From Styela clava (lineage: Eukaryota > Chordata > Ascidiacea > Stolidobranchia > Styelidae): a stretch of DNA of 64,000 nt. This document shows, piece after piece, positions 4,108 through 26,932 of this stretch. Position numbers and translations under genes: made by a program. A model generated the notes under the pieces. That model was not told the DNA's origin. It did no database searches and worked only from the letters and a program-made list of their open reading frames with translations. Positions within the stretch are counted from its first letter, which is position 1, and each line of letters begins with the position of its first letter. The stretch lies in NCBI RefSeq assembly GCF_964204865.1, contig NC_135258.1, positions 7,493,001 to 7,557,000 on the forward strand. The letters run 5' to 3'.

Positions 4108-4446
4108 CTGATTTAATTTAATAGTGTAAAAAATAAAATTCAATCAAACTGTTGTAACATTGATAAAAATACAGTATGTTATACCACCGGCACAATCTTG
4201 ATATTACACAATTTCTCATTACAAAAGTCAGCTCTAGGTCTAGCCAGACATCCTACTAACTATGACTGACAATTGTATATGGGCTAAGCAATTAAAATCC
4301 AAAATAGCACTTGAAATTGAAAATATTTATTCTTACCAAGCATGGATAAAAATAATATGTTTGTATATAAGTATCACTGTATCTGAAGGTAAGACCTAAT
4401 GGATAAGATCTTTCATAATTTTTCCTGGTACTAATCAATCAATATA

Positions 4447-5439: not shown

Positions 5440-5603
5440 ATACTTACCTGACGAGGCAGTCAACCGTGATCATGCAGGCGGTTCTGCCTAGGCGAGGCTT
5501 GGCCATTGCACTTGGGCCGGGTTGACCCTAGCGATTATCCCAAATGTGGATAACTCGGTCGTGTAATTTCTGTTAGTGGGGACTGCGTTCGCGCTATCCC
5601 CTT
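5440..5603 (+). ncRNA. U1: U1 spliceosomal snRNA
   Basis: U1 recognises 5' splice sites by base pairing. The gene starts with ATACTTACCTG, the invariant sequence that pairs with the 5' splice site. Stem-loop 1 with GATCATGCAGG (U1-70K site) follows. Stem-loop 2 has the loop CCATTGCACTTGG containing ATTGCAC, the U1A-binding motif. Next come CCCAAATGTGGATAACTCG (stem-loop 3 side), the Sm site TAATTTCTG, and a terminal stem-loop GGGGACTGCGTTCGCGCTATCCCC-like. The length, about 164 nt, equals human U1. All key motifs are intact, which argues for a working gene; no 3' box was confirmed. The 3' end is placed by alignment from memory and may be off by a few bases. Confidence 0.94.
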
Positions 5604-6387
5604 CCAATCTAAATAATAAAATACTGTACGCTTATTCATAGTTATATAAACGCTGTGACTTTTTTTAAGTGACTTGCTCAAAGATAAACAAGGGTGCAAT
5701 GAAACGCCACATTCCCGGCCGCTTTGAAAATAGAGCTAATACCGAGTAAATGATTGAGATTATATTAAAGTAGGCTTCCAAGCATGAAGTAAAAGTTGCA
5801 CTCTGCCCAAACCCTTGGCCCCTTACAAAATGTCAACATATTTCTTGAGATCTGGTACACCCATCCTACAGAGAACTTAATGTCTAGTTACATATCTACA
5901 TTTGTTTATGTCTACGCAATAGTTCATTATTTGGGTAATGTGAACGCTGCTCTGGGATTCCACCATACAGTTCTAAAGAGCAAGGTAGTAATATTTTTTT
6001 CAATTTCAATGATTGCGAAAAACATGTTGTAGGCATTCGGACAAGAATAGTGACAGCTTTGCTGTGCAAGCGATTGCGATACTCTGAAAGTTCTAGTAGT
6101 GCAGCCCAAGATTCGCTGTAGTTTTATATGTTTTGAACTCTGCCTTTCGTGCCGAATCTGATCGTTATTCAAATAGTTCACCAGTTAGGTGGGGCAAGAG
6201 CAACCAATTCACTCGTGAATGGTTAAACGACCCATATTAGAGAACCAAGATTCTGATATTCAACATCCGGAAAATGGGCTCCGAAGTTTAGCATCAACAC
6301 ATCAAGTTGGTCATGTACATTTTCATCCCGGTTTCCATTTTGGGTTTCTATTATTCCATTCACAAGTACTAATGAGATAGTCCAGAC

Positions 6388-6727
6388 CAGTGGTTGCCAA
6401 ACTTCTTTGTATCGTTACCCTTGAATCGAATTACCAAATAACGCAATTACCCCTTTCACAGAAATACAGTAGTCATATTGATATTGTTATCAATTTTCCT
6501 TTGAGTAAACATGGCGATAATACTAACACGTATGGTCGTATGGCATCTCCCGATCCGACTTGAAGATGGTAAACTTGCACTAGCTTATCGTTTTAGTCTA
6601 CAATCTCTACGGCGAAGTCATGTTATTATTGTTATGAAAGGGATCATAAAATGAATTGCTGAAACAGACAACGTCTGGATTTCACCAAGAATTGGCGGGG
6701 GAAATTCTCCTAGTTTGTGAACCACTG
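6388..6727. mobile_element. 340-bp hAT-type non-autonomous element
   Basis: The left end CAGTGGTTGCCAAACTTC is matched by the right end GTTTGTGAACCACTG as an inverted repeat typical of hAT elements. Flanking 8-mers GTCCAGAC and GTCCGGAT agree at 6 of 8 positions. There is no transposase. Confidence 0.75.
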
Positions 6728-7739
6728 GTCCGGATATTCAAAATCGGAAAAATCTCAATTTATTACATTATTCTGCCACAACTACAATTTCATTTTACGA
6801 AGCCGGACACGGACCCCACAAGCCACAACATTCGGTACGGTACACCCCTGGTACATCCTATCAATGTGGTGCACGCTTCCATCTTTTTGATACACAGCGG
6901 GGTTTACTATACACACGGTTGACGAGCACTGCTCTAGAATGGAGACTGTCTACCAGAGCCAAAACAGCAACAGGGTTTGGTTTGCAATGAAGCAGCAGTA
7001 ACTAATAAAAATTCGGTTCCACTTCGATATGCGTTTTATCTCAGAATCATAAGCCTAACCCGCTGTCATCGTTGAGTAGAAACTGTGATCGCATACCAAA
7101 GTGGCATTACTGTAAAAAAAATATATCACGACTTTTGTCTCCATCTTCGTCTAAAAAAACTAAATATTAAAATCCTGTGGTTAAACAACCTAAATGAACT
7201 TTTCATAGAATATATATTTTTCAAGTCTTCTCGATGAGATTGCTTCTCATTTATGGTTTCTTTCCTACGAAATGAAAAGTTCGTCGCGATTTGACATCTA
7301 GAAAAGCGGTTGTTCTATTTAGTACCTTTTCTGTTGTGAATTTGATTCTGCAGAACTGAGTTCAATTTTGTTTGAAATGATCTTGTGACGGGACGATTTT
7401 GCATATTCTTCGGCAATATGTTAATGTTGTTATTAATAATGTTTATCGTATCATCAACAACAAATTCCCTAGATTTTGGGGCTTTTTTGTGGAATATAGA
7501 GGCATAGCAGTAATTTCTCGGGATAGGCCGAGACTCGGATCAGCACTCACAGGCGGGTCGAATCGACGCGTATTTTGGACTCGATTCGATTTCAAGACCT
7601 TGACATTTTTACCGAGTTTTGAATTCATTTCGTTTTTACCAATTGATGCCTACGGTTAGTATTTTTACTTCCATAATGCAGATTTCTACAGCATCAAGTA
7701 CATGCATCTGGAACAAGTAACTAGCTAACTAATCTTATA

Positions 7740-7837
7740 CCCAACATGAGCTGGTAACCAAACAAGAGGCGTGGTTCGCCATATAATTAAGCTATCTAAT
7801 GGGTTTTATTTTCTCCGTGATAAATATGTAAAAACCT
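7740..7837 (-). repeat. Dispersed repeat family D, copy 1
   Basis: On the minus strand this contains ATATGGCGAACCACGCCTC with ACATATTTATC upstream. The same order recurs at 29964-30100 and 58800-58945 on the plus strand and partly at 56935-56995 on the minus strand. Ends are undefined and the class is unknown. Confidence 0.55.
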
Positions 7838-8866
7838 ATCCAATTTTGACTTTCATTATCACCATTGTGGACAGGCATTCGAAGTTACCCGTTTTTCCGG
7901 TAATAATTATGACGTAATATTTTAGTGAAACCATGAATGAAATTTTATTGCGTAAAATTATTTCACCACTCGCAGCGCCATTAAGCAAGAAACTAATCGT
8001 GGGAGAATTGGAATTTTTGGGTCAGCGAGGCCATTTCCCCGATATTTCACTAGTTTTGGGCTATTTTGTTTAGGTTAGTCCAGGTTATTGTAATCTCAAA
8101 ATAGTGACGGGGAAGTGGATAATTGCTTGTTCAAACTACGCGTTAAAAGTAATTTTCCACTTACGACCTTGTGCCACATTTTGGGGTTTTTAGTATCTTT
8201 TCCTGGTCGTACTGTTTTGCTGGAATGTAAATAAATTAGATTCATCGTAGTACCGTAGTATTTTTTTTTTTAAATATTCCAGTTCAGAGGTAGGCCGGTC
8301 AGAGGACTTATTGATGAACCAAGAATCTTGTTATGTGTCCAGGGCATGTGGGAATAGGCTGGTTTATTCAAAAATCTAGTGTGCCGGTACCCTACCGGTT
8401 CGCCATTGTGGACAGTTGGACCTGCATGAATATAAAATGCCAACCTGACCACTGACCAGCATTTACAATATATTCTTAGAATTCATTCACACATGATTTA
8501 ATTCTGGGATCCCATGCAAATTTTAATGTAGTCTATACTTGTATTCGAATGATTTAAAATAACTCTAATTCACTTATGACTTATAAGGTTATAAATGTTA
8601 TTTTTCTTGATCGTAAACACCTAATTCTGTAATTGCTGAATTGTGATAGAATTGACAACTTAGTTTTTTATTTTCAATTTTCTTGTAGACAATGTTGTCG
8701 ACTTCTTGATGATATTGACTTCTCTTTTATGGCCTTTTTTATACAAAATAAACAGCTGGAATTGCTAGTTAATTTCTCATCTTATTTTTTTTTGCAACTA
8801 ATTCTAGAACGGCTAATTAGTTTCTCTTCATTGTAAATGAATGTGGTAATTTTTAAGAGAACTGAC

Positions 8867-9190
8867 TTATACAGTACGGCACACTATACAAATCGGGTGA
8901 CATTGTCCCGTTTCAGAGAAACCCATTTCACAGATGATCAGACACTCCTCCTTTGGAAGACGTCTGGACATTGTTGTCCCGGGTAATTGGGATTGGGACA
9001 TTGTTGTATGGGTAATAATACAGTATAATAGGGTTGCGCAAAATACTACAAAAAAGCGCTGGGAAAAAAAAATCCGATTTAGCGAAGGAAAAAATATTTT
9101 ACCGTAGCATTCGAGAGTTTTTATCAAAAAACGGCAATTTTGGTCATGGGACAGCCGCGATTAATTCAGATTATTATTGAGATGAGCATG
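8867..9190 (+). repeat. Dispersed repeat family E, copy 1
   Basis: Shares ordered blocks with 56549-56830, including GACGTCTGGACATTGTTGTC, then ATTCGA.AGTTTTTA and AATGGCAATTTTGGT-like sequence near the right end. The copies are diverged and have no coding capacity. The class is not determined. Confidence 0.55.
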
Positions 9191-10495
9191 AAGCGATATT
9201 AGGCATCTGACGTGGTCCCAGACGCCCCTCGTTTGTGAGACACAGAGTGTTTGTTCTATTGAGCCAAATGGAGGGAAATTCTTGGAATTTGGATAGTGTA
9301 CAACTTAAAGAATTTTTTCTAATTTTTTCAACTTAAAGAATTTTTTCTAATCATTGAAATGCGACTTGACAAATCTCACGAAAAAATTATCATTATTATT
9401 TTTGAAAATGTCATTAAAGATTGATAACAATTTTTTAGATATTTTTAGCTTTATTTTGTTTTTCACCAAGTTTAAAACTGTTATAAAAATCAAATTTTAT
9501 ATCAAAGCTTATGTGTAGAAAAATTTATCGAGGGATGATCAAGTTCTTATTAGGTATTTATGCGTCCTTCATTTTCAAAGGTTATTTTCAGATTTTTTAC
9601 CCCGTAATAAAAATCGCAGTTCTTAAATTATGAATTGTAATAAACTTCAAGATAAGCTTGATTAAAAATACTTGATATGTAAATCGCAATACTTCTAGAG
9701 CTACAAGTTCAATCTTTAATAAGTTCAAAAGAATAGTTTTGACATAGAAAAAAGATCTTATTCTTGCCTGATACTACATCTGATCACCAATCATTTTTTT
9801 TTCAAATAATTTTAAACATAAGCTGTAACCAGCCATTGATATCTGTTATAGTATTTCAATCTTCTGTCAAAACAAAAATTGTCGCCAATTCCTTCTCTAA
9901 AACTTATTTTTTATCTACCTCAAACACGTCTTGGATGACCAAAATCAATAATCAAAATAATCAAGGTATTTTTACTCATATAAAATTTGAACTATTTACT
10001 CGATCCCAGTAAGGAAACACTCGATGCGAAAATTTTCATGTTTTAAATGCTTTCATCAGATTACACTTTTTTCAAACATGGCTGGTGAGATGTTTGGTAC
10101 GCTTTAAAATATAAAGCTGTCTACCAAAAATAACTATTTTTTGACTAATTTATATGGGTTGGAGCCATAAAAGAATAAATGATTGGGGTTTTGTTTTATA
10201 CGAAATTCAAAAAAAAAGAGTTTTGTCATCAGTTGTATTTGCTAAACCTCTTCAGAGTTTTCAAACCTTCGGTATTATAGAGCCCATGAAGAGGTTAGAC
10301 TATTATTTTTGGAGCCCCACAATAAATTTTAAAAAGATAAAAACACATTTTAATTGTCCTGAGTAAACTGAAATCACTTTAGTCAATGGCTCGGATGTAT
10401 TTTCTGCTTTATATTGAAATAATATTATTTTAAAAAGTAAATGAATAGTTCGCGGAGCCCCTAGATTTCTTTTACTGAGCCCTGGTGCTCTATGG

Positions 10496-10804: not shown

Positions 10805-11540
10805 CTCTATGGAGCACTTTGAGAACCAATGTACTAGTATATAAACTTAGTATCAAAGTAGACAAACCTTGCTCAAGGAGTTCAGGGTCAATTAGTTGGC
10901 AGATTAATCATGAGATCCAAGTATTATAATTTTCAAGTTTGATGAGTTTTTTTTCTCATTTACTCAGCTTAACCCTATTTCAAATGTAACCTGCATGTTA
11001 CCTATTATGTAAAGTTTTAAGAACAGAATGGGATTCGAGACGTGATTTCCTATCCGTTGTTGAAAGTTACAAATTGTGTAAATCAGTGCTATGGAGTCAG
11101 AGTCGTTTGTAATCATGCCAGAGTCAAAAGTTTGAATTCTTTGGAATGAGACTTTCAATAGTGCTAATCAAAGTTAGAATTTATGATATAGACTCAAAAG
11201 GGCATCAAGTTTTTCAGCATTTTCAAAACAACAGACAATTAAAGAAAGTTTGTATGTGCAGAAACTTTTGGTATCTAAATTTGTTTTCTTGATTTTGGAG
11301 CTGAGGTCGAAATTATTTTCAACCAGAGTCAGATTAGAATTTTATCCAGAGCTGAGCTGGAATAGTTTATTAGCCAGGAGTTGGAAGTCTGATTCATGTT
11401 TTTTTTTTTATCAGACTCCAGCTCGAGTATTATCATTTTATTTCCCCATGAATATAAATCAATTCAATTACTCCTATTGAGCTTGTTCTAACCTTTAATT
11501 TTACTTTTGAATCATACAGATATGCGCTAGGAGTAATATC

Positions 11541-11576
11541 ATGGAGAGATATTTAATGCAACACAATGCCCCCTAA
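11541..11576 (+). CDS. Upstream ORF overlapping the RPP38 start
   Basis: An 11-codon frame ([11 protein letters not shown], stop TAA) starts 25 nt upstream of the RPP38 ATG and overlaps it by 11 nt in another frame. If the mature 5' end lies upstream of 11541, for example at the AG ending at 11519, ribosomes would meet this ATG first. This could lower RPP38 translation. Function is inference. Confidence 0.35.
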   Translation: MERYLMQHNAP

Positions 11577-14500
11577 ACCTCAGAAACAAATCTTGAAAAA
11601 TTGTCTTCAAGAGCCGTACGATTTAAGTTGGTGAGTTTGCATTTAAATTGGTTTGTAGAGGTTCTATCTTGGTATATGCTTTTCACTCTAGGCTGTGGTT
11701 TCAGTGTGTTTCACTGTTGTATTTGACTGGGATGCCTGCATGGTATTGCCCTCTAGTTTATAAACCATTTGTGCATTCCTTGTGTGGTGTTCAGCAGTTT
11801 TTTCTCTGGTTGGAGAAGGGCTGGGGAGCCCTGGGCTTTACCACCTTACCAGAAACTTTAGTGGCCTCAGCTTCGAACCAGCTAATTATTTTTTCACTAC
11901 TTCATGTACAAATACATAAAGTCTATCTTTATTTAGCTTATAATATCATTCAGTATCTTATTTTTTAAATGACTTAAAAGTTTCAAGTTAAATTTGTGAA
12001 AATATAAGTTTTAAGATTAATATCCAAATTTGAAACTCCAATAATTATGGTTTTCAATCCCACTGCCACAAAACTGTATTTGGTTTTATGGCAGCAGTCA
12101 TATCGAAAACACCATTCGATACTGATCTGAGGCTGGAACTTCTCTCCAAGTTAAAGAAAATGAAGCTCTGGTACCAGAACCACAGTTTTATTGTACTGTG
12201 GCTGTAGAGCCAGCTATTCAGATTTCAAACCAGTTTCGGTTAGGAATGAACAAAATAAGATTCAAACTAATGAAATTAAATTGGTACTCTCGTAGTGTCT
12301 TTACCAGGTTTGAGTTAGGCCATGATTTTACTCCAATTTTATTTATTTTAGTTCTATTGCGAGTTAGGGGACTGTTAGCCAAGTAAATATCCCCCTGCCC
12401 ATAGGTTTCAGTCCCTTTACACAACTTGATGTAAAGTAGGCGAAAAAAATTAGTTCCTCCATTGCTCTATATTGGTACACACACTTCATCATTAAATTTG
12501 TATTTATGTATGATATTAAATATACAGTCTATGTGAAAGATATGTAGATACAATACGGTATTTCCTTGTTGAAATTTGTATCATTATTTATGTCTATCAA
12601 TGAGTTGTTTCAATATGATTCATAGTTTGTTTTATTCTTTTGCACCATGAAACGTAGTCACTATTGTAATTATTGTGTGTTTGATATGAGTGGCATGGAC
12701 TCACTGCATTTGTATTGCACTATTTTTATTCGTTCGCCGAAAAAGCCCGTTTACTGAATTTATGACATCGTTTTATGACATTGTTTTCAATTTGATAGCA
12801 GTAAGCCCTTATTCAAATTTGGTTTTCCTAGATATTTTTCATAGTAGGCTACTATAAATTTTGAAGTAAATTTAATTTCTTATGTTTGATAACTTTACTA
12901 TTAAAGATTTGATGTGGTCTTGCACATTTTTTAAAAATAATTAACTTGATAAAGTTCTTGGTTACATTTAAACATATCAAACTCATGCATAATGTTACAA
13001 AATTGTTTTTAATAGTTAACATAAATTAGAATTTTCTTACCGTAACTCTTTATTGTACATTTTACTTATAAACCCTTATAAAAACAATTTTTATAAGACT
13101 ATAAGTTATAACGAATGTGTGTGGTGTCACATTTTACTGTAATGAACATTATTATACTCATTTGCCAATCTTAAAGTAACTCAACAAAAATTCAAATTTT
13201 ATGAGTCAAAATAGAAATGCTAGAATTGAAGTAATTATGTAGATAAGGTTCTGAACACTTCAGTTTCCAAAGTGACAGAGGAAACAATGGCACTCCCTTC
13301 ACTGTCATGTTCATTAGACTTAACAAAACAATATTCGTTACAATAAATCACGCCTAAGGGTGTTGAATATAATCTATAAAAAAAGTACGACATTAAATTC
13401 AAATTTTGTTTTTTTTATCAATTGCAGAACTGAAATATTAATTTTATGTTGATTGTACTTCATAAAATTCAACTTTTTCGCCATACAGAACTTGAAAAAT
13501 AGTTACAGTAATCATTAATTTTTGAATTTCCAAAGTCTGTATTGTTACCTGTTTTAGTTAAAGGTTTGACACCCTTGCTTTGAGTAAACATAAAAAATCA
13601 AGGATTGATACAAACAAAAGTCTATTTTGAAATTAAGAAAAGAATTATTAGATGATCTATTCATAGGTTTAAATAAGGAAATGTTTTTGATGAGATAATT
13701 TCAATGATTAGAAATTCAGACATTCACAATTCTGTCATTCCTCATCAAATAAAGGCAATGATAATTGATCAATCACATTCTGTGGCATTTTCAGGGAACA
13801 TAGGCTGAAAGTATATGACATCATATGCCAGTCAGGATTTTATTAATGGGGGGGTTACTCTAGAATTAAAACAGTGCGCCAAAAGTAGAACGTGAAACGT
13901 CATAGGACGTTGGACAAACTTGAAATTGCTTGTATTTTACAGAGAAACGCCATTAAATATATTTCAGTGTTGTGTGCACCTGAACTGCCTTGCCAGCCAT
14001 TGTTCGGGGAATACTTTGCCAATTTCAAACATGCACTCATTTTCGACTGTTATCCCATATTCGGCGGTAACTAAGTTTGCAAACAGGGGGTTACGAATGT
14101 TTTCATTTGGGTTTATTTGGAACAGGTATGAAACAGCGAAGCTGTGATGTTCTCAACCACATTGGATAGCTGTTTTTTTTTTTTTAAAAGTTAGCAATTT
14201 GGAGTGTTTCTGAATTAAGGTCCTAGTCGTATGTATTATTCGTAAATACATTGGGCAATGGCAGAAAATCCTGACTCCATTTTTGTTTCATTAGACTGAA
14301 TAAAATTTCATCTGTAATTTTATTTTGAATTTTTATCTGATTTCTTGTGTAAAATTCAATGACCTTATAATGTACCTAATAAAAGCATTTTTATATTTTC
14401 ATGAATGTACTTTTTAATTATGAAACAATCAATTGAATACTTACTTTGGAAAACTGCCCAATTCATGTTTTTTTTAAGTTTTGTTTTTTATTAATTCAAC

Positions 14501-17500
14501 AGGCCACAACTGGAAAAAGGCGTCAATTCATTTGTTCTTTCAGAGTTAAAAAGGTGAGAGATTTCATACTTTTTATATTTTCTAGTATGGTTCATGTATC
14601 CAAAACTTAATTAAGAATGGTTCTCAACCTTTTCTGATACACTACTCCCTTTGCCTCTTTTGGATCTCCTTCTTCCCCCTTTTAACTATACTTGAAAACT
14701 CTGATTTTGTTCATTGTTATGGAAGGATGTTTAGCTAGTGTTATGCACAACTCCCACCCTGGCTCTTGTGCAATTTGAATAGTTTATTTATATTATAGGT
14801 ATTACAATAATATCAAATGGCCTAATGAAGCAAAATAACTAAAACAAAATGGAATACAAAGTAAACTTACTGTTTTTTATTCTCTAAAACAACAAAATTC
14901 CTTCCCAATTGTGAAACGCTGACTTGGAAGATTTGTAGAAGCCAGTTGTGCTTCTACAAATTTCAAGATTTCGATAAAGTTTGCAAAAGGTTACCAATGG
15001 TTATTATTTGTGGCATAGATGTCAGTGAATAGTCGGTATTTAGTTAGTACAAGACTCCCAAGAAGTTTCAGTCATCACTGACAAGAAAATTATAATTATT
15101 TATGGATATGGCGACCAGCAGCTAATCCAATGGAATAACGAAAAACTGTTTAAGAGAGAACAAGAGCAGAAAGTTCAGACAGATAAAGCAATTAATGATA
15201 TTCTCATTAAACCAAGCTTAGTTACTCACGTTTTAATTATGGCAAGGTTCTTACAAGTGAAGTTTGCTCCAAATCAGGGTTTCCCTATCTTTATGTACTT
15301 TGATACCCTATGCACAATTTGTAGAATCGCTTGTGTATCGAACCCCCCGATTGGCTTTTGTACTATGATTGGACGAAATAGATCATTTGAATTTGCGATC
15401 GTAGACATGGTGGTTACTGTAGTTGTAGTGAGTGAAAATTTGACTTTGAAAGGAGTTCTTGAACTCAGGTCTTCAAATTATTTTACATCCAGTACTGAGA
15501 AGGTATTTTCAGGCAGATTAGAAGCTATGAAATAAATATATACTCAATTTAATGTATCTCTTGTCGCAGTCGAAATGTTCCTCTGGGGTTACATGTACCC
15601 CAGTTTGGGAACCTCTGCCATAAATGTTTCTTTACACCGGAAATTGCACTTGAATATCTGTGATTGAAACTCTTAAGTTTTTATTTTGAAAGCAAAAATT
15701 GACAACTCATCATTGAGATTAGTGGAAACTCGAGCTATCAATCTATTTATGATAATACAAACACTCTTACAACTAACACAAATCTTGCATTGTTTTTGAT
15801 AAGTTTGTGGAAAATTTCAGTTTAGCTCAGAAAATCGAAATTATATTTTGATTCTTAATGAAGAATGTTTGTTTGGTTTGTTGTATTCAATTTTTTGAGA
15901 GTTTCTTCTTGTTTAGGATCTAATAAAGCTCACTTACATGGTAAAAGGTTTTAGATGGATACAATTTATATTCTGGTTTTCCATTTTGCATATGGTTGGG
16001 CTATTGATGGACTGGCCAAGTTTTGTACCTTAGATATCTAACCTGAAGCATCAGAATAGTGAAAAATGCTGGAAGACCATGTCAATTGCTTACAAAAATG
16101 AAGCAGAAATGAACTTTTGAAAATGAATGCAAGGGTATACTATAGAAATATTAAAACATTATCAAAACTATATACCAGTATTCAATCAACTTTTCAAAGG
16201 CTTGGTACCAAATTGCAAATTGTCTCTTATATGGCTTCTGTTGCATAAATATAAACCAAAACCAAGTTTTTGTGATTTATACAAATACTATAACTTGGAA
16301 ATTATACAAAATTTATTTCCTCGAAATGTTACAAAGTGGCATTCTGTTAAACTATCTCATCATCCAGTATATTCTAAACAAATGCTTATTTTAGTTTTTT
16401 TAAAGCGAGTTCATTGTTAGCATTTCTATTTTCTCCATTTTTATCTGGACAGAAATCTCAATTACGGAATATAATTGAATAAAACCCTTTTCTCCTATGT
16501 TCAATCACAGCCTATAGTCGTCTCCTTTAAATGTGAACGCAGGAGCAAGAACTATTGTGATTGATCAATTGCTTGTATTATTTTTATTTTACTGCGATGT
16601 TATATTTTTATATATAAAGACGATTGTCTTTTAGTAAGAATCGAAACGATTTCGATTTAATAAAATTCTAAAAAAATATTAACATAAAAAATTGAAATCA
16701 GTTTTGAATATAAACATCAAAATATTGAATTCAAGTTTGTTAGCTTCTGTCACTTGCATTGATATTCAGAAATCAGCTCTCCCGATGTGTGTGTACCATT
16801 AGGGAGGTAACTAATTTTGATTGCCTACTTTAAATAAAGTTGTGTAAAGGTACTGAAATATATGGTATATCCAGTGGTGGGATTCAAATTTGTTGTCAGC
16901 CGGTTCTGTTACAAAAAGTCATATTTTTTCAGCAAATAAACCAGTAATGCTAATTGCTAACCGGTTTGCCGATCTCATAAAATTCTGTGAGACGGTTCTA
17001 TAGAACCGGTGTGAACCAGCTGAATTCCACCAGTGGGCACAGACAGTCTCCAAACTCGTGATAGAACTAAAATAAGAAAAATCAGAATAAAATTATGTCC
17101 CAATCCTGGTACACACACTACGGAAGTACCCAGAAATCTATGTTGGATTATGTTATTGTCTATGTTGGATTGATAAATGTCTGATAAACCAGATTCTGGA
17201 ACATAAAGCAAAATCATTAGTTACAGCTATTTAAAAAAATGTGATGCTATGATTTTAAACACTGGATAATGATTAGAATTGAACAAAGCTGCTGCACAAC
17301 GAACCATTGATATATCAGAGTTGGCATTTCTACTTGACAAAAATCCAATATTCAGGATTCAAAAATATAAGAATTGCACAAAAGATAGTTCCTGATAAAA
17401 TCTTCGTTGTTCAATGTAACATCTCGCACATTAGCCACACCGCAAACTCAATGAAGAGCCGCAGATTTGAGACTGTTTCCGGGAAAAACACTTGTTTCTG

Positions 17501-20125
17501 CTATTTATATAAGATTGAGAGAAAAGGTAGCAAATGTTCACCTGTTTAATATTTTTTCATTGATTTATGTTTATGTTCAACATTGACTTAATTTCGGTAT
17601 AAATTATTTTCCATATTTCAAGAAGTTTTAGTTTGCTTGCAGTAATACAAAATTAGTCCTGAAAAATATGTGATAGACCAGGCTAAAATTAACTGTCAGT
17701 ATTTCAAATAGTAGGCAGTTGAATAAATCTAATTAAGATGATAGTTATAAGTATGTGAGCAAGTTCACAAGAGTAATTTATTAATCTGTAAAAACAATCT
17801 CAAAATAATCATCAGAAATTGAAATGGTTGTTAAGTATGAGAAGAATTGTTCTGGGATCAAAGTTCGGACAAACATTTATTTGAGATTAGCGGTTCTCAA
17901 ACAGTGGGGCGTGTTCCACAAGAGGGACATAGACAATTTTTTTAGGGGGTGAGAAGCTAATTGAAATTAGAAATATTTGTTAGATTTGATCTTGCTCACC
18001 TTATTCTGGATATTTATATTTCTTTATTTTGGATATATAGCCTACGTTCCATCCACCGTGTTTTCATCGTGTTATTTCAATAAAACATTACTTCACTATC
18101 TAAATTTGTAGCTTATTATTAGCTAGTTATATTTTAAGGTGGGTTGCGAGACATGACAAATTCTAAAGAGGTGCCGTGACTTGAAACGATTGAGAAACAC
18201 TGTTTTAAATGGTGTCTCTATATTATTCAATTGGAATCCTTTCGGCAACGATGCTGAGTTTATTATAATATTTAGTGTCCAACTTAACTAAACCATCTTG
18301 ACTAATTTTAAATTTCTGCGTTCCAAAAGTGTATGTAACAATATGGAGGTAACTAATTTTGTTCGCCTACTTTACATCAAGTTGTGTAAATGGACAGAAA
18401 ACCCGTGGGCAGGGAGTATATTCACTTGGCTAACACAGACAGTCACCGAACTGGTAATAAGGAAAATCGGAGTAAAATTATGGCCTTACCCTAGCTAACT
18501 TGGTACACATACTACGGAAGTACCAAAATTTCATATGTTTCTACCCTTCAGATTCATCCAGAAGCATCCTGAGCTAAAGAAAGTGAGATCAGCAGGAAAG
18601 CGAAAACAATCTCAAGAGAAGTTGGAAGATAAAGACTCGCTAAGGTATTTTTAAGCTATTGTACCAAATGTACTCGGGGTTGAAGACAGTTTTGATTCTG
18701 ACTTGAGTCTGGTGGTTAGGGTTAGGCCATAATTTTATTCAGATTTTCCTTATTTACCGGTAGTTATATTATTACGAGTTCGATGGCTGTCAGTGTTAGC
18801 CAAGTGAATATACCCCCTGCTCATAGGTTTAAGTTCCTTTTATACAACTTGATGTAAAGTAGGCAAACAAAATTACCTTCATATTGGTACACACACCTTT
18901 GGACTCCCGAATCTAAGTTGATGAAAATTCAGACTCTAGTCGAGTCGAAACTTTTGAGAAAAATAAATAAATGAAATCGAAAACTTTGGTGTATGCAAGC
19001 CTTCCTTAGTAGACTGAAGAAGTTCATTTTTTTTCAGTTTCTACTGAAAATTTAGACTCCTGATCCTGAATATTGCGATTAAGAGTCTGATATTCTGACT
19101 TTGCCAAAGTAAATATGTTACCACTTACCGTAATACAGTGACTTCACAAAGCCTGACTTCAACTTTAAATCCCCAAACTCAAATCCGTTAGTATCCTTGA
19201 AAACTACTCGACAGTGATTTTGATTTTAAATAATTCATAATAACTACAAATTATGATTTCATAGTTAAATGGATATTTTGCTAAAATATTCTCAAAAACA
19301 GCATTAATACAGCATGGCTATCCAAACTCTATCGATTTATGCTATAAATGAATACGACCCCAATAGCTTGGTGGATAATTTTCATTGCAATAATATGTAG
19401 GGTTATCAAGTATTGTTCAATGGTAGAGGATGTAAGTGCCCACTTGTACCCAGTAATGTCTGAAACGAATTAAAATGTCAGTTGCACACTTTCTTTTATT
19501 TGTTGTTTATATAAAGTTCAAGTCTCTGGCATTTGAAATGACAACCTCAACCCTCAAGTCTTGATGTCAACCGTTCCTCTATAAAACCCAATCCATTGAT
19601 AACGAATCACTGTTTCAATTCATACATTATATTTTTAGGAATCATATTTTTACTGGAATCAACATCATCACAAAGAAACTTGAGAGGGGAAGTCTTGATC
19701 TTGTTCTTGTTTGTAAATCCGCGAAACCTACTCTACTCACTCAACATCTCATCCCTCTCTCCGTTACCAGATCTTCTCCCGCTGCTTGTATATCTGGTTT
19801 GAGTTCGGCATTGGGCAGTGAATTAAATCTGAAATCTGTACTCGCTTTTGGAATATTTTTACCTGAAAACGACACTGAATTAAGAGCTGTTGTTGATAGC
19901 ATAACCCCCAAATTACCTAAAATTGATATACCTTGGCTAAGAGGGTTGGAAAACGAGAATCAAACTGTGGATTTTTCTGAGAATGGAAACAGAATTTCCA
20001 AACCAGATTTAGAAGAGAAAAATTCTGTCGATACCGAAAAATTCACTCTGCTACCAACAAAAATCTGTATCAATCAAAGTATTGCTAACAAAAAACCGAA
20101 AAAGGATAAAAACAATAAAAACTAA
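11566..20125 (+). CDS. RPP38: Ribonuclease P/MRP protein subunit p38 homologue
   Basis: An L7Ae/L30e-family RNA-binding subunit of nuclear RNase P and RNase MRP. Four exons: 11566-11630, 14503-14553, 18552-18644 and 19639-20125. They have GT/AG borders and all three joins fit in phase, giving 231 aa (human 283). The N-terminus has EPYDLSW, matching NNPYIIRW of human RPP38. The L7Ae core is in exons 3-4: [20 protein letters not shown], then [19 protein letters not shown], then [10 protein letters not shown], then PKIDIPWL. The tail is lysine-rich ([10 protein letters not shown]) as in the family. Exon 2 is only 51 nt. The stop TAA at 20123-20125 is followed by PPP4R3 after 5 nt. A 3' splice site (AG at 11518-11519) lies upstream of the start with no coding exon before it. 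I am confident of the identity; the family is divergent, so the two small exons rest mainly on phase and position. Confidence 0.9.
12283..12487 (-). mobile_element. Family A MITE copy in RPP38 intron 1
   Basis: Starts GGTACTCTCGTAGTGTC and carries the shared interior ACACAACTTGATGTAAAGTA. It ends at about TTGGTACACACACTTC, lacking the last few bases of the consensus. Confidence 0.7.
14612..15620. mobile_element. About 1 kb degenerate hAT element in RPP38 intron 2
   Basis: The left end (ATGGTTCTCAACCTTTTCTG followed by CACTACTCCC) and the reverse complement of the right end (CAGAGGTTCCCAAACTGGGG) are like the long termini of Charlie-type hAT elements. The 98-codon frame at 15239-15535 lies inside and may be a decayed transposase tail, but I cannot identify a dimerisation motif in it. 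No matching 8-bp duplication was found. Confidence 0.55.
16780..17132 (+). mobile_element. Family A MITE split by a nested insertion
   Basis: The left part runs from about 16780 (CTCCCGATGTGTGTGTACCA) to 16870. The right part resumes at 17037 with CACAGACAGTC and ends at the TACGGAAGTACC terminus. Between them lies a second element (16872-17035). About 12 nt of the family consensus are missing at the junction, so the event was not a simple insertion. Confidence 0.7.
16872..17035. mobile_element. 164-bp hAT-like element nested in a family A copy
   Basis: Begins CAGTGGTGGGATTCAAATTT and ends GAATTCCACCAGTG, an inverted repeat of about 14 nt. The interior has CCGGTTCTGTTAC and a roughly inverted GGTTCTATAGAACCGG. 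Target duplication is absent, in line with the deletion in the host copy. Confidence 0.65.
17889..18202. mobile_element. hAT-type element family B, copy 1
   Basis: Terminal repeat AGCGGTTCTCAAACAGTGGGG on the left and GATTGAGAAACACTG on the right. The interior (TTAGATTTGATCTTGC, TTTTCATCGTGTT, GTAGCTTATT.TTAGCTAGTT) is shared with 35737-36033. Flanks TTTGAGAT and TTTTAAAT are a possible aged duplication. It lies in RPP38 intron 2. Confidence 0.75.
18317..18524 (+). mobile_element. Family A MITE copy just before RPP38 exon 3
   Basis: Full-length copy with the interior CCTACTTTACATCAAGTTGTG, ending ACGGAAGTACC 27 nt before RPP38 exon 3. Its right end therefore lies in the region expected to hold the branch point and pyrimidine tract of that acceptor. 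Confidence 0.75.
18700..18908 (-). mobile_element. Family A MITE copy in RPP38 intron 3
   Basis: Diverged copy: GGTTAGGGTTAGGCCATAAT at the left, interior AACTTGATGTAAAGTAGGC, and GGTACACACACCTTTGGACTC at the right. A CCGGTA hexamer interrupts the interior at about 18758. Flanks have decayed. Confidence 0.65.
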
Positions 20126-20129
20126 TAAA
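20114..20129 (+). terminator. Candidate poly(A) signals at the RPP38/PPP4R3 junction
   Basis: AATAAA occurs at 20114-20119, inside the last RPP38 codons, and at 20124-20129, overlapping the stop codon. The PPP4R3 ATG follows at 20131. If either signal works, cleavage would fall inside the first PPP4R3 codons. Use of these signals is untested and such hexamers are common in AT-rich DNA. Confidence 0.35.
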
Positions 20130-20130
20130 A

Positions 20131-23100
20131 ATGGCCGACACACGGCGTCGTGTGAAGGTATATACTTTAAATGAAGATCGACAATGGGACGATAAAGGGA
20201 CTGGCCATGTATCACATACATTTGATGCTAGAGTACACAGTACAACTCTTATAGTTCGAGCCGAACAAGATGGTTCAGTATTACTAGAGTCAAAAATACT
20301 GCCAGACACTGCTTACCAGAAACAACAAGAGACTTTAATTGTTTGGTCCGAAAGTGATAACACAGATTTGGCTCTCAGTTTTCAAGAAAAACCAGGATGT
20401 GATGAGATTTGGGAGAAGATTTGTCAGGTAAGAAATAAATTGAATAGAATAGAAGAAGGATAAGTGGTTAGTTTCGCAGAAACCCAATCATTAGCATAAG
20501 AAATAAATATTTGGATATTTTATTCAAGAGTGTTTGGTACTCCCATAGTGTGTGTACCAGGTTAGGGTTAGGCCATAATTTTATTCTGATTTCCCTTATT
20601 TTAGTTCTATTACGAGTTCGAGGACTGTCTGTGTTATCCAAGTGAATATACCCCCTGCCCATGGTCTTCCGTTCCTTTACACAACTTGATGTAAAGTAGG
20701 CGAACAAAATTCTCTACCTCCATATTGGTACACGTACTTCTGGAGCGCCGAGTGTTCTTTTTATAAATTAAAAAAAATTGAGTAAATAATGTAACCCTGT
20801 GCAACGCACTGCATTTTCTGCAAATGAGAAAAGTTTTGTTGATCAATCATATTGTTACGAATGTCTATGCTGACACACTCCAAGGTGCTGAATAGAAAAC
20901 ATGATGAAGTTTGTCTTCATAGGTATTAGAAATGTGTCTAAACCAAGGCTGTGGGTGGAAAAATTTAACATTGACTTCAACTCTAAATTTGGACTGAAAA
21001 AAATGTTTTTGACTCCACCCCTACACTGTGGCTTGTGGAAAAATTGTCTTCAGCTTCAAACTCAGTGTAAAACAATAATTAAAAACGGGCTTTTACCTAT
21101 GCAAGCCTAATTTAATAGCGCTTAGTAAACGTAATGCTTTTTGACATTCTATGAAAAATTTAGACTTATTATTATAACTGAAACCTGCCAAACTCCAAAT
21201 TCTGACTCCACAGCTAGACTAGTGTTTCTGAAACTGTCTTCTGCCGAATGCTGCTGTTTCGCAAAACAGGGACCAAAATTGTGACAAAAATTAATTTCCA
21301 TCTCGATCGGGGCAAGATAAAAAGTGTATGTATACCGGGGCAAAATAAGTTTGTGGAACGCTGGGCTAGACTATATCGATTGCTACATACCAGTTGTGCA
21401 TATATTACTAGGAGTAATCCTTGTAGCAAGCAATGTGAAAAGTCTAGGAATCAAGCAATGAATCAGACATAAAATTGAAATATTTAGTTTTCATCCAATT
21501 TGTACAATTTGATTTATATTTTAGGTTCAAGGTAAAGATCCCTCCGTCAGCATAACTCAAGATGTTGTTGATGACGCAGACGATGAAGATCGATTGGACG
21601 GAGGTTCTGACCTCGGAATCTCATCAAATGAACCTGTCGAACTTCCACCATGTGAGCTCAGCCAACTCGAAGAAATTGAAAATCTATTCGCGTCATGTTT
21701 ACCGACTTTAACGAGACGTGAAAAACTAGCAGTAGCTGTAGAAAATTGTGGATACATCCAAAAACTTTTAACTTTGTTTCGTATGAACGAAGACCTTGAA
21801 AATGTCGATGGTTTACATCATTTGCACGAAATTTTCAAAACTCTTTTCATGCTTAATAAAAATAGCATTTTTGAGGTTATGCTCGACGACAAAAATATCA
21901 TGGACATTATTGGTTGTCTCGAGTATGATCCAGCGATCGGAGAACGACGCAAACATCGAGATTATCTCACAAACGATGCTAAATTCAAAGAAGTCATTCC
22001 GATAACGAATCCTGAATTGAAGCGTAAAATTCACCAAACTTTTCGAGTGCAGTACATACAAGATGTCATTCTTCCAACCCCTTCTGTATTTGAAGAAAAC
22101 ATGCTCTCTACTTTAAATTCATTTGTTTTTTTCAATAAGGTGAGTTCAAAGGTCAATTTTTTAATTTTAACAGCATATTCTAAGTGTGGGTTTGGTCCGA
22201 ACATTCTCCAATTTGTAGCCCTGAAAGATGAAGTGGTTGAAATATCATAAAACTAAGAAATGTATTATTAAAAGAAAATATGTTGAATTGAAATTATCCT
22301 CGGGACAATAGGACTCTAGGCATCTTGTTAAAATTAATGTAAATTTGACCTAATTACCTAATACCTTAGTTAGTTTGCCCCTCAGTGCTCAGTCCCCTAC
22401 ACACACCAGCCATGCTAGGATCCCTACACACACCAGCCATGCTAGGATATGCTAAATAGTGAAACGAACAGATTAGCGCCAACAAAAAAAATATTATGTG
22501 AGAAACAATAAAAGTCAAGATTTTGGCCAAATTTTTAAGAATTTTTTTTCCCGGAATCCTAAACAACCCAACATGCTAATTTAACCTTAAAAGCAACATA
22601 ATCAGTTGCGACAGAAATACATTCCAGCATCATTTGATTGCTCTATTTTTAATACTGGAGCTTCATTTTACTCAATTAAATTCCAGATGTATCGTCCATA
22701 TTCCAAAATCCTAGAAGACTTTTTGACTCTGAATTTTGAATGTATTTCATTTTGTCACGGTGAAACAGTGTTTTGTCCCCTCTGATTAATCATTAAAGTA
22801 TTCTTCTGGGACAAATCCGGATGCAATAAGGTCATAAATAACTCTATTAAATTGTCATTATGTCTTATTCGTTACCAAGACTAGTCTGTTTTTATCTTAC
22901 TTTGAACCAGATGACAACAGGATTAAATTCAGGATTTAATTTTCGACTCTTTAGTTCATACCTTATTAGTTTAAACTGAATATTGTGACAAATTTTTCAT
23001 TTTATGACTTTAACAACAATATAACATAGGGTACTAGGATATTGTATATTGAACTGCAATTCCTTTCTTCTTGTCTACTTCCTTTTTTGTGGAAAGAGAT

Positions 23101-26100
23101 TCTTATATATACTTAGATTCTTTCAGTTCCAACCTATTTAAATGCAATAGATATTTAAAAGTGGGGCGAAGTCGCTTTATTGTATATTAACTTATTGGTC
23201 TTAAAGTCCCAACCTTCCGAAATAATATTCTATGGGCCTATTCTGTTAATTATAACATTCAATTATGAAATCCAATTCAGGGACTGCGAAAAACTATAAA
23301 TTCACTATTCTGAACAATATTTTCAAATATGAATTATATTCCAATTAGGTCATGTTCATCGAAAAAGATATAGATCGCATATTCATTAAGTGTAAAATTG
23401 AAATGTGACAAACGATGATTTGAAAAATTTCTATTTTTTGCAACTTTTAGAAATAAAATGGGATTATAGTCACACTATGAAACTTCGAAGGCTCAAAATG
23501 ATAAATTTTGAAAAGAAACCATTCTGATTTATTCCCAAATTTGAATTTGTAGTAGGGTTAATTTCTAATCAATCTGAGTATTTGATTTGTTCTGGACATA
23601 GTATTTCGGCATTATCACTCAAACAAATAAGGCGGACGATGTGGTTAGTACAATTTACAATGAATTCAATTTCTTATAACAATCAATTTTAACAGTGTAT
23701 AGTCGAAATATATAAGCTATAGTCTATTTCCAAAATGATTGAATTATTGTTCCTTCCCACTGATAACAAGTTTAAAAATACCCGCTCTATTCAATACTAG
23801 AGCAAACTATAAATCTATGACATCTATTTGAATATTGTATTGACAGATACTTTTTCAATGTTGCTATAGTAAAACACATTAAGACAAGCACAATTACATA
23901 TTTATAATATGGAATATGAAAGCTTTCATTTGCAACTTATTTATTAGTAATTGACTGCATTGTGATTGTTGATTGGATCAAATTTTTATAAAAATATGTA
24001 CAGTTCATGGAGAACTGTTACAAGAATGAACATAATGTTAAATATGGTTCACTAAAGTCTTTGTTTGAATTAAGATGTTCTATGTTACACTATAGACTGT
24101 TTACTCACTCAGTCACTCCCATTGGAACGTAACAAGGCAAACAAATGAGTTCTTACTAACAATATGCTACTCAATTTGTGTGTATTTTATTGTGTTAAGC
24201 AAGCAGAAATCTTCATGTTGGATAATTTCAAATGTAGAATTAACAATTCATATGAAACAAACTGAAATCTAAAAAATTCAGTTCTATTTATGCAACTGTG
24301 ATTTGATGATTGGATTGTACACTCACATATTGATTGATATTGGTGATAAATTTATAGTAAAGTAATAATATAGGCAACTGTTTAAAATTTGGCCTCACCA
24401 AAAATCAAATTTATGCTCCTTATCATATAAAATGTAGGACTACTCATTAAAATTACTGCGTACTAAATTAGATCTCCTTAGTTTAAACAAACTAATGAAT
24501 TTTGTTAATATGCAAAATATTTAAAAAAATAATTGATCATTAAATTGATAACAATCTCTTGAATTCAGTCAATTTGTTGTAAACAAGGATCTCTGAGTAT
24601 GGATAATTCCCCGAGCCTAGTCTTATTATACTTTACCATTCCAAATTTTTATGCATACCTAAGAAAGAGTGTTTTGCAAACTGTTCCACATTCCCTAAAT
24701 AAATTTCCCAATCAATCAAATATATATAATAAAACTTATAGAATAAAATGAGTAATTACGAAAACTGGTCATTATTATTTTTCAACCATTCTTAAAAAAT
24801 TGTCTTGATAAGTGAAAAGTGTCATTTACTATGCCATCATTGACTTATTTTTGATTGGTAATTGTTATTGAAAAACAATCCATTGAAGTTTTTTCTACAC
24901 CGGAATTTGATTGTCAAACAGTTAAATTCATTCATGTGAAAGATAATATTATCGGATTTCATATAAAAGTGTTCACCTTTCTGTTTCGTTTGAGAACAGT
25001 TTGTGGGTGCGATCGCCTGAAAGTAGTTAAGAGGTTAAAAAATACCTTGATAATTATGAAAATGGAAAACCCGCCATATAGAATTATCAAGACCTGTTAT
25101 TACCATATGAAGTTCCAGTAAGTTGTATAATATCACCAATGACCTAACTAGCGACTGCAGTTTTAGAAATCACTTGCACGAAGTCAATGTTTGACCATCT
25201 GATTCCAAATTTTCAAATACAGTGTTAAAAAAATAATGATCAAAGTATGTTTCCATATTTTTAGGTTGAAATTGTCAACATGGTACAAGACGATGACAAA
25301 TTTCTACGTTTGCTGTTTGAGCAGTTGCAGGATGAATCACAAAGCAATGAAAGAAGGCGAGAACTCGCTGGATTTCTTCGAGAATTGTGCACTTTTTCAC
25401 AGATGTTACAGATCATGAATCGAGATGAATTTTTTAAGCAACTAGTCGAGCTTGGCATCTTGCAAACGGTAGAATTACTTCTTTCGTCAGATGACGCAAT
25501 GCTACGACAACTTGGCGTCGATATCTTTGCACATGTGGTGGAACACAGCCCATCAATGGTTCGCGAATTCGCGCACAAAGAGATGGAAGAGAACCAAACA
25601 AACGACGATGAATTGCTGATTAACCTCGTCATCGAACAGATGATTTGCGATCCAGATCCCGAATTGAGTGGTGCAATGCAGTTAATGAATCTACTTCGAA
25701 TTCTCTTAGACCCAGAAAACATGATGGCCAACAAGAATGAGAAAACAGAGTTTCTAAGTTTTTTCTATTATCACTGCATGCATGTATTAATGGCTCCGTT
25801 ACTCGCTAACACAGCTGAAGATAAAATCGGTAAAGGAGATTATCAGACGGCAAATTTACTCAGTCTTATTTTGGAGTTGATAACATTTTCTGTTGAGCAT
25901 CACACATACCATGTAAAGAACTACATTCTGAACAAGGATCTCTTGCGAAGGATTTTGATTCTTCTCAATTCAAGGCACAGATTCCTTGCTCTTGCAACGT
26001 TACGGTTTCTGAGAAAGATCATCAGCATGTCCGACGAACTCTATAATAAATATATCGTCAAAGGTGACTTGCTACAACCTGTCGTTGATGTTCTTTTCCT

Positions 26101-26932
26101 ATCAGGAAAACGATACAATCTTCTTAATTCTGCTATTTTAGAGATGTTTGAATACATTCGCACAGAGGACATGAAACTTCTAATCACATATATCGCTGAA
26201 AAACATCTACAATCCCTGGAAAAAATTGATTATGTGCAAACATTCAATGGAATAAAACAACGATACGAACAGCAGAAAGATCGTGCAAACAGACTAGGCG
26301 AACCAATGGATTCATTGGACACTTCGTTAGAAATAGAAAATAATCGATTTCGACGAGACGCTCGAACCATGGATGAGGACGAAGAGATGTGGTTTGATGC
26401 AGAAGAGGAGGAAGGAGACATTCTACTTTCACTTACAACGTCGTCAGAGGATCCCGACATGCCAAAGGTCAATATTGATAAAATTCTCGAGGTCGAGAAA
26501 AGGGAGGAAGCAGACACAGTGAAGCTCATTACAAAGCCTGCAGAAATAAGCGTTAACATAACATCAAGTCCAAATAATATAATCTCAGATAAAAAGAATC
26601 AAATAGCAGCTCTAACCAATGAATGTGCTAAAGTTACCAATGTTAATGGAATTGAAACTAATGGAGAACCAAATGCAGAACATGTTACAGCGATTCCGCC
26701 ATCGGAAACAACTACCTCCACACCCATTGTCACTGTTAAAACAGGGCTGGTCGGACTCGTTGATTACTCTGATGATGAAAGTGAAGAAGACGAAGAAAGC
26801 AACGGTGATGCTAACAAAAATGGAAAGGATGCAAGCCTTCTGAACAGTGCCAAAGCTACAGAGTCACCACCTCACTCAACAGAACCTGCAAGAAAAAAGC
26901 CTCGTCTACAGGCAGTTGTAGATAGCAATTGA
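20131..26932 (+). CDS. PPP4R3: Protein phosphatase 4 regulatory subunit 3 (SMEK/Falafel)
   Basis: Targeting subunit of the PP4 phosphatase, acting in the DNA-damage response, cell division and stress signalling. Three coding exons: 20131-20427, 21525-22139 and 25265-26932, all joined in phase 0, give 859 aa (human PPP4R3A 833). Residues 1-100 form the EVH1/PH-like domain that docks FxxP motifs and begin [20 protein letters not shown], almost identical to human. Exon 2 carries the Smk-1 region with [22 protein letters not shown] and [17 protein letters not shown]. Exon 3 continues with armadillo-like helices ([47 protein letters not shown]). The C-terminus has the conserved [12 protein letters not shown] acidic stretch and a basic ARKKPRL nuclear signal. 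It starts 5 nt after RPP38. AATAAA at 27407-27412 is a candidate poly(A) signal. Confidence 0.97.
20536..20749 (-). mobile_element. Family A MITE copy with target duplication (reference copy)
   Basis: 214 bp from GGTACTCCCATAGTGTGTGT to TTCTGGAGCGCC. Flanking 8-mers GAGTGTTT (20528-20535) and GAGTGTTC (20750-20757) match at 7 of 8, which marks the family as hAT-like by target-site length. It lies in PPP4R3 intron 1. The interior includes TTAGGGTTAGG. Confidence 0.85.
21221..21364. mobile_element. 144-bp hAT-type MITE with perfect target duplication
   Basis: Perfect 8-bp duplications GCTAGACT lie at 21213-21220 and 21365-21372. The ends AGTGTTTCTGAAAC and GTTTGTGGAACGCTGG are imperfect inverted repeats. 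It lies in PPP4R3 intron 1, about 150 nt before exon 2. Confidence 0.8.
22140..25264 (+). other. PPP4R3 intron 2 (3.1 kb)
   Basis: Apart from a 27-bp duplication at 22395-22448 I see no repeat family or alternative exon here. The sequence is strongly AT-rich and frames are short. The intron ends TTTTTAG before the GTTGAAATTGTCAAC start of exon 3. Reading through the donor at 22140 adds 37 codons and then stops, so retention would truncate the protein. Confidence 0.6.
22395..22448 (+). repeat. Two-copy 27-bp tandem duplication
   Basis: The unit runs from CCCTACACACACCAGC to ATGCTAGGAT and is present twice head to tail with no differences (22395-22421, 22422-22448). It lies in PPP4R3 intron 2. 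Confidence 0.85.

What the first reader, a model, noticed from the sequence alone, without database searches (positions are those of the whole stretch)
20100..20160. RPP38 and PPP4R3 separated by 5 nt, with stop, AATAAA and next ATG within 11 nt
The RPP38 TAA (20123-20125) overlaps an AATAAA (20124-20129) and PPP4R3 starts at 20131. There is no AG directly before the ATG; the nearest upstream AG (20103-20104) lies in RPP38 coding sequence and lacks a pyrimidine tract. So either one mRNA carries both proteins, or a 3' splice site inside the RPP38 CDS accepts a spliced leader, or PPP4R3 has an internal promoter in RPP38. Each makes the two mature mRNAs overlap or compete. Operons with almost no intercistronic DNA are known in tunicates; this junction is an extreme form.
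Basis: partly seen in the sequence, partly recalled or inferred. Interest (0 to 1): 0.85.

Follow-up and report, generated by a model that had tools for sequence, protein, structure and literature searches.

The report
AUG-poor gene abutting its neighbour
In a sea squirt genome, two unrelated genes are separated by only five letters, and the first is almost free of the start signal AUG, which suggests that ribosomes scan across it to reach the second gene; this is unusual for a chordate but has precedents in flies and green algae.

Summary
The junction is real. RPP38 ends in TAA (20123-20125), and PPP4R3 starts at ATG 20131 after TAAAA. An AATAAA overlaps the stop, and the gap holds no AG. The genome is most likely a tunicate's (cellulose synthase exons beside a GH6 exon), and the junction is single copy. 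The Ciona kind of operon, with the trans-splice acceptor at the gene boundary, cannot apply here.

Shuffles give 10.7; 0 of 4000 were as low. Its introns carry about 19 ATG per kb. This is the mark of a leader that ribosomes scan. My best reading is one spliced bicistronic mRNA in which PPP4R3 is reached by leaky scanning or reinitiation (0.5). The main rival is a separate PPP4R3 5' end inside RPP38 exon 4, where an acceptor-like site lies at 19770 (0.35).

Caveats: given the protein the depletion is weak (P 0.035, or 0.17 with permuted codons), downstream introns would invite NMD, and there is no RNA evidence. A second tight pair, URM1-mTERF (6 nt, no AG), exists in this genome.

The parts
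11566..11630 (+). RPP38 coding exon 1 (ATG 11566; in-frame TAA at 11554 makes it the first possible AUG start in this exon)
14503..14553 (+). RPP38 coding exon 2
   Evidence: AG/GT ends, frame closes
18552..18644 (+). RPP38 coding exon 3
19639..20125 (+). RPP38 coding exon 4, ends TAA 20123-20125; one ATG in 487 nt, shuffles mean 8.9
19983..20012 (+). the only ATG inside the RPP38 CDS beyond its start: +1 frame, 9 codons and stop, A at -3 and G at +4
20124..20129 (+). AATAAA overlapping the RPP38 stop (another at 20114-20119); possible RPP38 poly(A) signal (inferred)
20126..20130 (+). whole intercistronic region, TAAAA, no AG
20131..20427 (+). PPP4R3 coding exon 1 (EVH1 domain), ATG in context AAAATGG
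21525..22139 (+). PPP4R3 coding exon 2
25265..26932 (+). PPP4R3 coding exon 3 with stop
11500..11519 (+). acceptor-like stretch (...ttttgaatcatacag) before the RPP38 start; candidate cis- or trans-splice site (inferred)
11541..11576 (+). short upstream ORF (11 codons, A at -3 and G at +4) overlapping the RPP38 ATG; in the mRNA only if the 5' end lies upstream (inferred)
19751..19770 (+). acceptor-like site inside RPP38 exon 4 (ccctctctccgttaccag), about 360 nt before the PPP4R3 ATG; rival PPP4R3 5' end (inferred)

Best explanation
RPP38 and PPP4R3 are read from one spliced, bicistronic mRNA. Ribosomes that do not initiate at the RPP38 AUG keep scanning through the RPP38 exons, which are almost without AUG, and start at the PPP4R3 AUG in strong context. 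They miss the RPP38 AUG by leaky scanning, or because they first used the short overlapping uORF at 11541 and resumed scanning. Some transcripts may end at the AATAAA at the junction and give RPP38 only. Shown: the gene order, the 5-nt gap, the absence of an AG, and the AUG depletion that follows the exons. Inferred: the shared mRNA, the scanning, and the alternative poly(A) site.
For: RPP38 CDS beyond its start: 1 ATG in 693 nt; 10.7 in dinucleotide shuffles, 0 of 4000 as low; 16.6 expected at the rate of PPP4R3 and two other open frames of the window (125 in 5241 nt), Poisson P about 1e-6; no 696-nt stretch of the window, either strand, sampled every 10 bases, has as few as 2. ATG is the most depleted triplet in RPP38 among those expected 4 or more times (2 with the start, against 11.2). 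RPP38 introns carry 149 ATG in 7864 nt, so the depletion follows the spliced exons. It also holds upstream of the rival acceptor (start to 19770: 0 against 3.4, P 0.012; 19771-20130: 1 against 7.8, P 0.0002). In the segments aligned to human p38, the human residues would give 6.1 ATG with local codon usage, this species' residues 3.2, and the actual number is 0 (P 0.009 given the residues). PPP4R3 has the opposite trend (71 against 56.6). ORF1 is shorter than ORF2 and the gap is short, as in algal bicistrons (PMC11892635, passages and section 8). The ORF1 of a second tight pair, URM1, is also ATG-poor in raw count (2 against 7.0, P 0.007) and its ORF2 is not (28 against 27.9).
Against: There is no RNA evidence. 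Given the protein, out-of-frame ATGs are only weakly low: 1 against 4.0, P 0.035; with RPP38's own codons permuted 2.6, P 0.17. For URM1 the same kind of test gives 2 against 3.2, P 0.25. The ATG idea arose after I had listed the ATGs, so the RPP38 P values do not come from a prior hypothesis. Exons 1-3 alone: 0 against 1.9, P 0.08; fixing the protein, exon 4 alone P 0.10 and exons 1-3 P 0.26. The remaining ATG at 19983 has a strong context and would catch scanning ribosomes. The RPP38 start context (A at -3, C at +4) is not clearly weak. If the exon starts at 11520, three ATGs precede RPP38 within 46 nt. Two introns lie downstream of the RPP38 stop, which would invite NMD (general knowledge).
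Confidence: 0.5

Rival explanations
1. Two overlapping mRNAs. RPP38 mRNA is polyadenylated just past the junction AATAAA. PPP4R3 mRNA has its own 5' end inside RPP38 exon 4: a spliced leader or an upstream non-coding exon joined to the acceptor-like site at 19770, or a promoter in RPP38 intron 3 or exon 4. The two products then compete for the same pre-mRNA.
For: 19770 has a strong pyrimidine tract (0.82 over 17 nt; six other acceptors or acceptor-like sites of the two genes 0.65-0.76) and is the only YAG with an AG-free approach in exon 4; sites this strong occur 24 times in 64 kb on the + strand, and none lie in three other coding stretches tested, 4536 nt. ATG depletion is strongest downstream of it. 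Ciona trans-splices many mRNAs and resolves operons this way (PMC2760879, PMC7986045 passages). The NMD difficulty disappears. A TATA-like TATATAAAG lies at 19508 in intron 3.
Against: At the + strand density about 0.2 such sites are expected in 487 nt by chance. Depletion also holds upstream of 19770 (P 0.012). A leader from 19771 keeps the strong-context ATG at 19983. Ciona's SL plus GT has no exact site in the genome and only two with one mismatch, though a diverged SL is not excluded. 11 TATA-like sites lie in the same 9 kb.
Confidence: 0.35
2. One bicistronic mRNA, but PPP4R3 is made by internal ribosome entry on the A-rich stretch before its AUG, or by reinitiation directly after RPP38 termination. 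AUG scarcity in RPP38 is then a by-product of its amino acid make-up.
For: The stretch before the ATG is A-rich and predicted mostly unpaired. Given the protein, AUG scarcity is weak. Most polycistronic fly loci do not meet the requirements of a scanning mechanism, according to PMC4528330 (passages).
Against: ATG is the most depleted triplet, and the human residues of the same segments would not be this ATG-poor. The junction has no unusual fold (z -1.06). Reinitiation after a 231-codon ORF is inefficient (general knowledge).
Confidence: 0.1
3. Artefact or broken gene: RPP38 is not a functional gene here, or the assembly has joined the two.
For: None found.
Against: RPP38 is an intact frame found only here (3 exon matches, all at this locus) and matches human p38 along the L7Ae core; the junction occurs once, on a 23.5-Mb contig.
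Confidence: 0.03

Closest known systems
Drosophila dicistronic transcripts stoned and snapin (Wall et al. 2005)
   Same: A first cistron poor in AUG. The cited title and PMC3372440 say that in-frame AUGs in cistron 1 attenuate cistron 2 (title; statement; the paper itself was not read).
   Different: Here both in-frame and out-of-frame AUGs are nearly absent, the gap is 5 nt, the species is a chordate, and nothing has been measured.
Green algal bicistronic loci translated by leaky scanning (PMC11892635)
   Same: AUG depletion before ORF2, ORF1 shorter than ORF2, short inter-ORF.
   Different: The algal ORF1 start context is weak; here it is not clearly weak. ORF1 is longer here (696 nt; algal medians 357 and 291) and the gap shorter (5 nt; algal medians 183 and 40).
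Ciona operons resolved by spliced-leader trans-splicing (PMC2760879, PMC7986045)
   Same: Tunicate, same-strand genes with no intergenic DNA. URM1 is an operon gene in Ciona too.
   Different: In Ciona the genes abut at the acceptor; here no AG lies between stop and ATG, so any acceptor would lie inside RPP38 coding sequence.
Adjacent fly genes that share exons, coding in one gene and non-coding in the other (PMC4528330)
   Same: This would be the class if PPP4R3 has a 5' end within RPP38 exon 4.
   Different: Here the shared exon would be the last exon of the upstream gene and the leader of the downstream gene.

Membership tests
AUG-poor bicistronic mRNA read by scanning | Two complete, independently conserved ORFs on one strand with a short gap | tested here: met
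   gap 5 nt
AUG-poor bicistronic mRNA read by scanning | AUG depletion in ORF1, not in ORF2 | tested here: met
   raw counts: 1 against 10.7; PPP4R3 71 against 56.6. Weak once the protein is fixed
AUG-poor bicistronic mRNA read by scanning | Weak ORF1 start context, strong ORF2 context | tested here: inconclusive
   ACAATGC for RPP38, AAAATGG for PPP4R3; no species-specific context model
AUG-poor bicistronic mRNA read by scanning | Mature mRNA that spans both ORFs | not testable with these tools
   no RNA data
Ciona-type SL operon | Trans-splice acceptor at the boundary between the genes | tested here: not met
   no AG in the gap; the nearest AG lies in RPP38 with 29% pyrimidine before it
Ciona-type SL operon | Species carries SL RNA genes | tested here: inconclusive
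   Ciona SL plus GT, 0 exact and 2 one-mismatch sites, 160 in all at up to 2 mismatches (reversed control 63), 100 listed; 69 of those listed (my count) lie in one array that is tRNA spacer in the units fetched. A diverged SL, or one among the 60 unlisted sites, is not excluded
Tunicate genome | Cellulose synthase fused to a GH6 domain | tested here: met
   GT2/cellulose-synthase exon and GH6 exon 1.8 kb apart on one strand; that they form one gene is inferred. PMC7464555 seen as abstract start; that the fusion marks tunicates is partly recalled

The most novel reading that the evidence does not exclude
This tunicate keeps a set of gene pairs as true bicistronic mature mRNAs, outside the spliced-leader operon system. 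The first protein has lost Met codons and out-of-frame AUGs so that ribosomes can scan through it, and a uORF overlapping the RPP38 start shunts ribosomes past RPP38 to PPP4R3, so that the ratio of an RNase P subunit to a phosphatase 4 subunit is set in translation.
Probability: 0.2. Interest if true: 0.75.

Novelty: new member of a known kind. Interest (0 to 1): 0.5.

Why it matters
Tunicates are chordates, and the best studied ones resolve operons by trans-splicing. A pair that cannot be resolved at its boundary would show either that chordate cells translate long bicistronic mRNAs by scanning, or that an acceptor inside one protein's coding exon makes two genes compete for one pre-mRNA. The AUG depletion gives a simple sequence test that can be run on any annotated tunicate genome.

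Tried and rejected
Fusion by readthrough or frameshift: rejected. Tandem TAATAA, a stop in the PPP4R3 frame at 20116, and I see no canonical slippery heptamer at the end of RPP38 (by inspection). Acceptor at 20104 with the CTAAC-like stretch before it: no pyrimidine tract. IRES-like structure: z -1.06. Relatives of PPP4R3 exon 1 in bacterial and viral collections: none. COX1 for the mitochondrial code: no match; the mitochondrion may not be held. SL RNA genes: see the membership test; the three array units in L043 and one in L045 are tRNA spacer, one of the two one-mismatch sites (L044) showed no Sm motif by eye, and the other was not fetched. Survey for more tight pairs: the 12 best of 118 LSM-family hits were fetched; in 0 of 12 did an ORF of 70 aa or more begin within 40 nt of the stop (a short first exon would be missed); in two, an open frame (52 and 78 aa, unverified) ends 7 nt before the start; six of the 12 look like copies of one SNRPG-like gene (the name is recalled). 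URM1 was the only gene looked up because of Ciona operons, so 1 of 1 is no rate. Of the 6 rows, L017 and L030 look spurious, L019 is one 7TM-like frame cut by a stop, and L021 (2 rows) and L022 are one repeated sequence. Species not identified: one search listed 20 of 1,408 papers, among them five ascidian genome notes of 129 to 907 Mb, none near 377. An RPP38-PPP4R3 pair in print: the names were searched (9 of 9 listed, none on this; 12 of 97 listed, all with zero mentions of PPP4R3, SMEK and Rpp38); tunicate bicistrons in general (14 of 14; 5 of 5), listings only; none seen. A protein search for further PPP4R3 copies did not complete.

Full report
In the window, RPP38 ends with TAA at 20123-20125, an AATAAA overlaps it at 20124-20129, and the PPP4R3 ATG is at 20131. 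RPP38 closes in frame over four exons, 11566-11630, 14503-14553, 18552-18644 and 19639-20125, giving 231 aa. It matches human RNase P p38. PPP4R3 runs over 20131-20427, 21525-22139 and 25265-26932. The junction is single copy in the 376.6-Mb genome, and RPP38 is found only here.

Which organism? A GH6 hit in the genome lies 1.8 kb downstream of a cellulose-synthase-like exon on the same strand. A CesA with a GH6 domain is the tunicate hallmark (PMC7464555, abstract start seen; partly recalled). Whether this species trans-splices is not shown. Ciona's spliced leader followed by GT, with up to 2 mismatches, gave 160 sites against 63 for the reversed control, none exact and two with one mismatch. 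Of the 100 sites listed, 69 by my count lie in one tandem array on C3; in the four units fetched the match lies in the spacer of tRNA genes. The 60 unlisted sites were not seen.

Why it is not a Ciona operon junction. In Ciona operons upstream and downstream genes abut directly, and the downstream gene's 5' end is a trans-splice acceptor (PMC2760879, PMC7986045 and PMC11155486, passages only). Here the five bases between stop and ATG hold no AG, and the nearest AG upstream is a poor acceptor in RPP38 coding sequence. So a spliced or continuous PPP4R3 leader must contain RPP38 coding sequence; the one exception would be a transcript that starts within the last few bases.

The new observation. 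The spliced RPP38 CDS holds one ATG beyond its start, at 19983, opening a 9-codon frame. Shuffles give 10.7 on average, and 0 of 4000 reached 1. At the rate of PPP4R3, the PHPT1-like frame and a 751-codon open frame (125 in 5241 nt), 16.6 are expected. No 696-nt stretch in the window, sampled every 10 bases on both strands, has as few as 2. ATG is the most depleted triplet among those expected 4 or more times. RPP38 introns have 149 ATG in 7864 nt, so the depletion stops at the exon borders. Part of it is in the protein: no Met after the first, and fewer residue pairs that make ATG. Fixing the protein, 1 against 4.0 (P 0.035), or 2.6 when RPP38's own codons are permuted (P 0.17). In the segments aligned with human p38, the human residues would give 6.1, these residues 3.2, and the actual count is 0. 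I formed the idea after seeing the list of ATGs, so these P values describe rather than test.

How it may work. A leader that ribosomes must cross is expected to lose AUGs. If the whole RPP38 CDS is crossed, all exons should be depleted; if only a leader from the acceptor-like site at 19770 is crossed, only 19771-20130 should be. Upstream of 19770 the count is 0 against 3.4 (P 0.012); downstream it is 1 against 7.8 (P 0.0002). This favours the bicistronic mRNA, modestly. The 5' side is odd: an acceptor-like site at 11519 is followed by three ATGs within 46 nt, one of them in strong context opening an 11-codon frame that overlaps the RPP38 ATG. If that stretch is in the mRNA, ribosomes using this uORF would terminate past the RPP38 AUG and could reinitiate at PPP4R3. 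That is inference.

Against it: the ATG at 19983 is in strong context, the RPP38 start is not clearly weak, and the two introns after the RPP38 stop should provoke NMD. The overlapping-mRNA rival avoids the last problem. It has a real candidate site at 19770, the only YAG of exon 4 with an AG-free approach; 24 sites as strong occur on the + strand of the window and none in three other coding stretches of 4536 nt.

A second case. URM1 is in a Ciona operon with DTL and CHERP, so I looked it up here. In this genome URM1 ends in TGA, then AAAACG, then the ATG of an mTERF-domain protein: a 6-nt gap with no AG. URM1 has 2 ATGs beyond its start against 7.0 in shuffles (P 0.007), but 3.2 are expected given its protein (P 0.25); one of the two opens a 28-codon frame that overlaps the mTERF start, which would hinder scanning. 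The mTERF ORF is normal, 28 against 27.9. So the tight junction is not unique, but it was not common in what I sampled: 400,000 nt of strand near the locus gave no second convincing case, and 0 of 12 LSM loci fetched, of 118 hits, had an ORF of 70 aa or more starting within 40 nt of the stop.

What is known. Dicistronic fly mRNAs with AUG-poor first cistrons (Wall 2005, title only; a statement in PMC3372440) and algal bicistrons (PMC11892635, passages and section 8) are the closest precedents. I file it as a likely new member of that kind, at 0.5.

Noticed in passing
L004 (G000:C4:11164864-11168145) 1489-2940: A second tight pair in the same genome: URM1 (ATG directly after ...ttttaccag) ends TGA 1783-1785, six bases AAAACG, then an mTERF-domain gene at 1792.
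   Followed up: partly
window 5440-5603 +: U1 snRNA gene (Rfam RF00003, 147 bits), about 6 kb upstream of RPP38.
   Followed up: no
window 41642-44433 -: Long ORFs without a Pfam match that resemble human KIAA0232 from memory only.
   Followed up: no
window 3736-4143 -: Single-exon Janus/Ocnus family gene (Pfam Ocnus), likely PHPT1.
   Followed up: no
G000, LSM search; L031, L036, L038-L040, L042: 118 LSM hits in the genome; six of the 12 fetched encode closely similar SNRPG-like proteins, probably retrocopies.
   Followed up: partly
G000:C3:24847563-24961794 -: Long tandem array of a Ciona-SL-like stretch; in L043 its units are about 633 bases and carry two tRNA genes each.
   Followed up: partly
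L003 (G000:C10:7557001-7567000) 4896-10000 -: Gag- and pol-like ORFs of an LTR retrotransposon just beyond the window; seen in an ORF listing only.
   Followed up: no
L019 (G000:C10:7380001-7390000) - strand: A 7TM-like reading frame interrupted by one in-frame stop followed by an in-frame ATG.
   Followed up: no
window, e.g. 12290-12490, 18340-18520, 20540-20750: A dispersed repeat with 'ccccctgccca' and 'ggtacacac' motifs, in both orientations, in the introns of RPP38 and PPP4R3 (read by eye).
   Followed up: no
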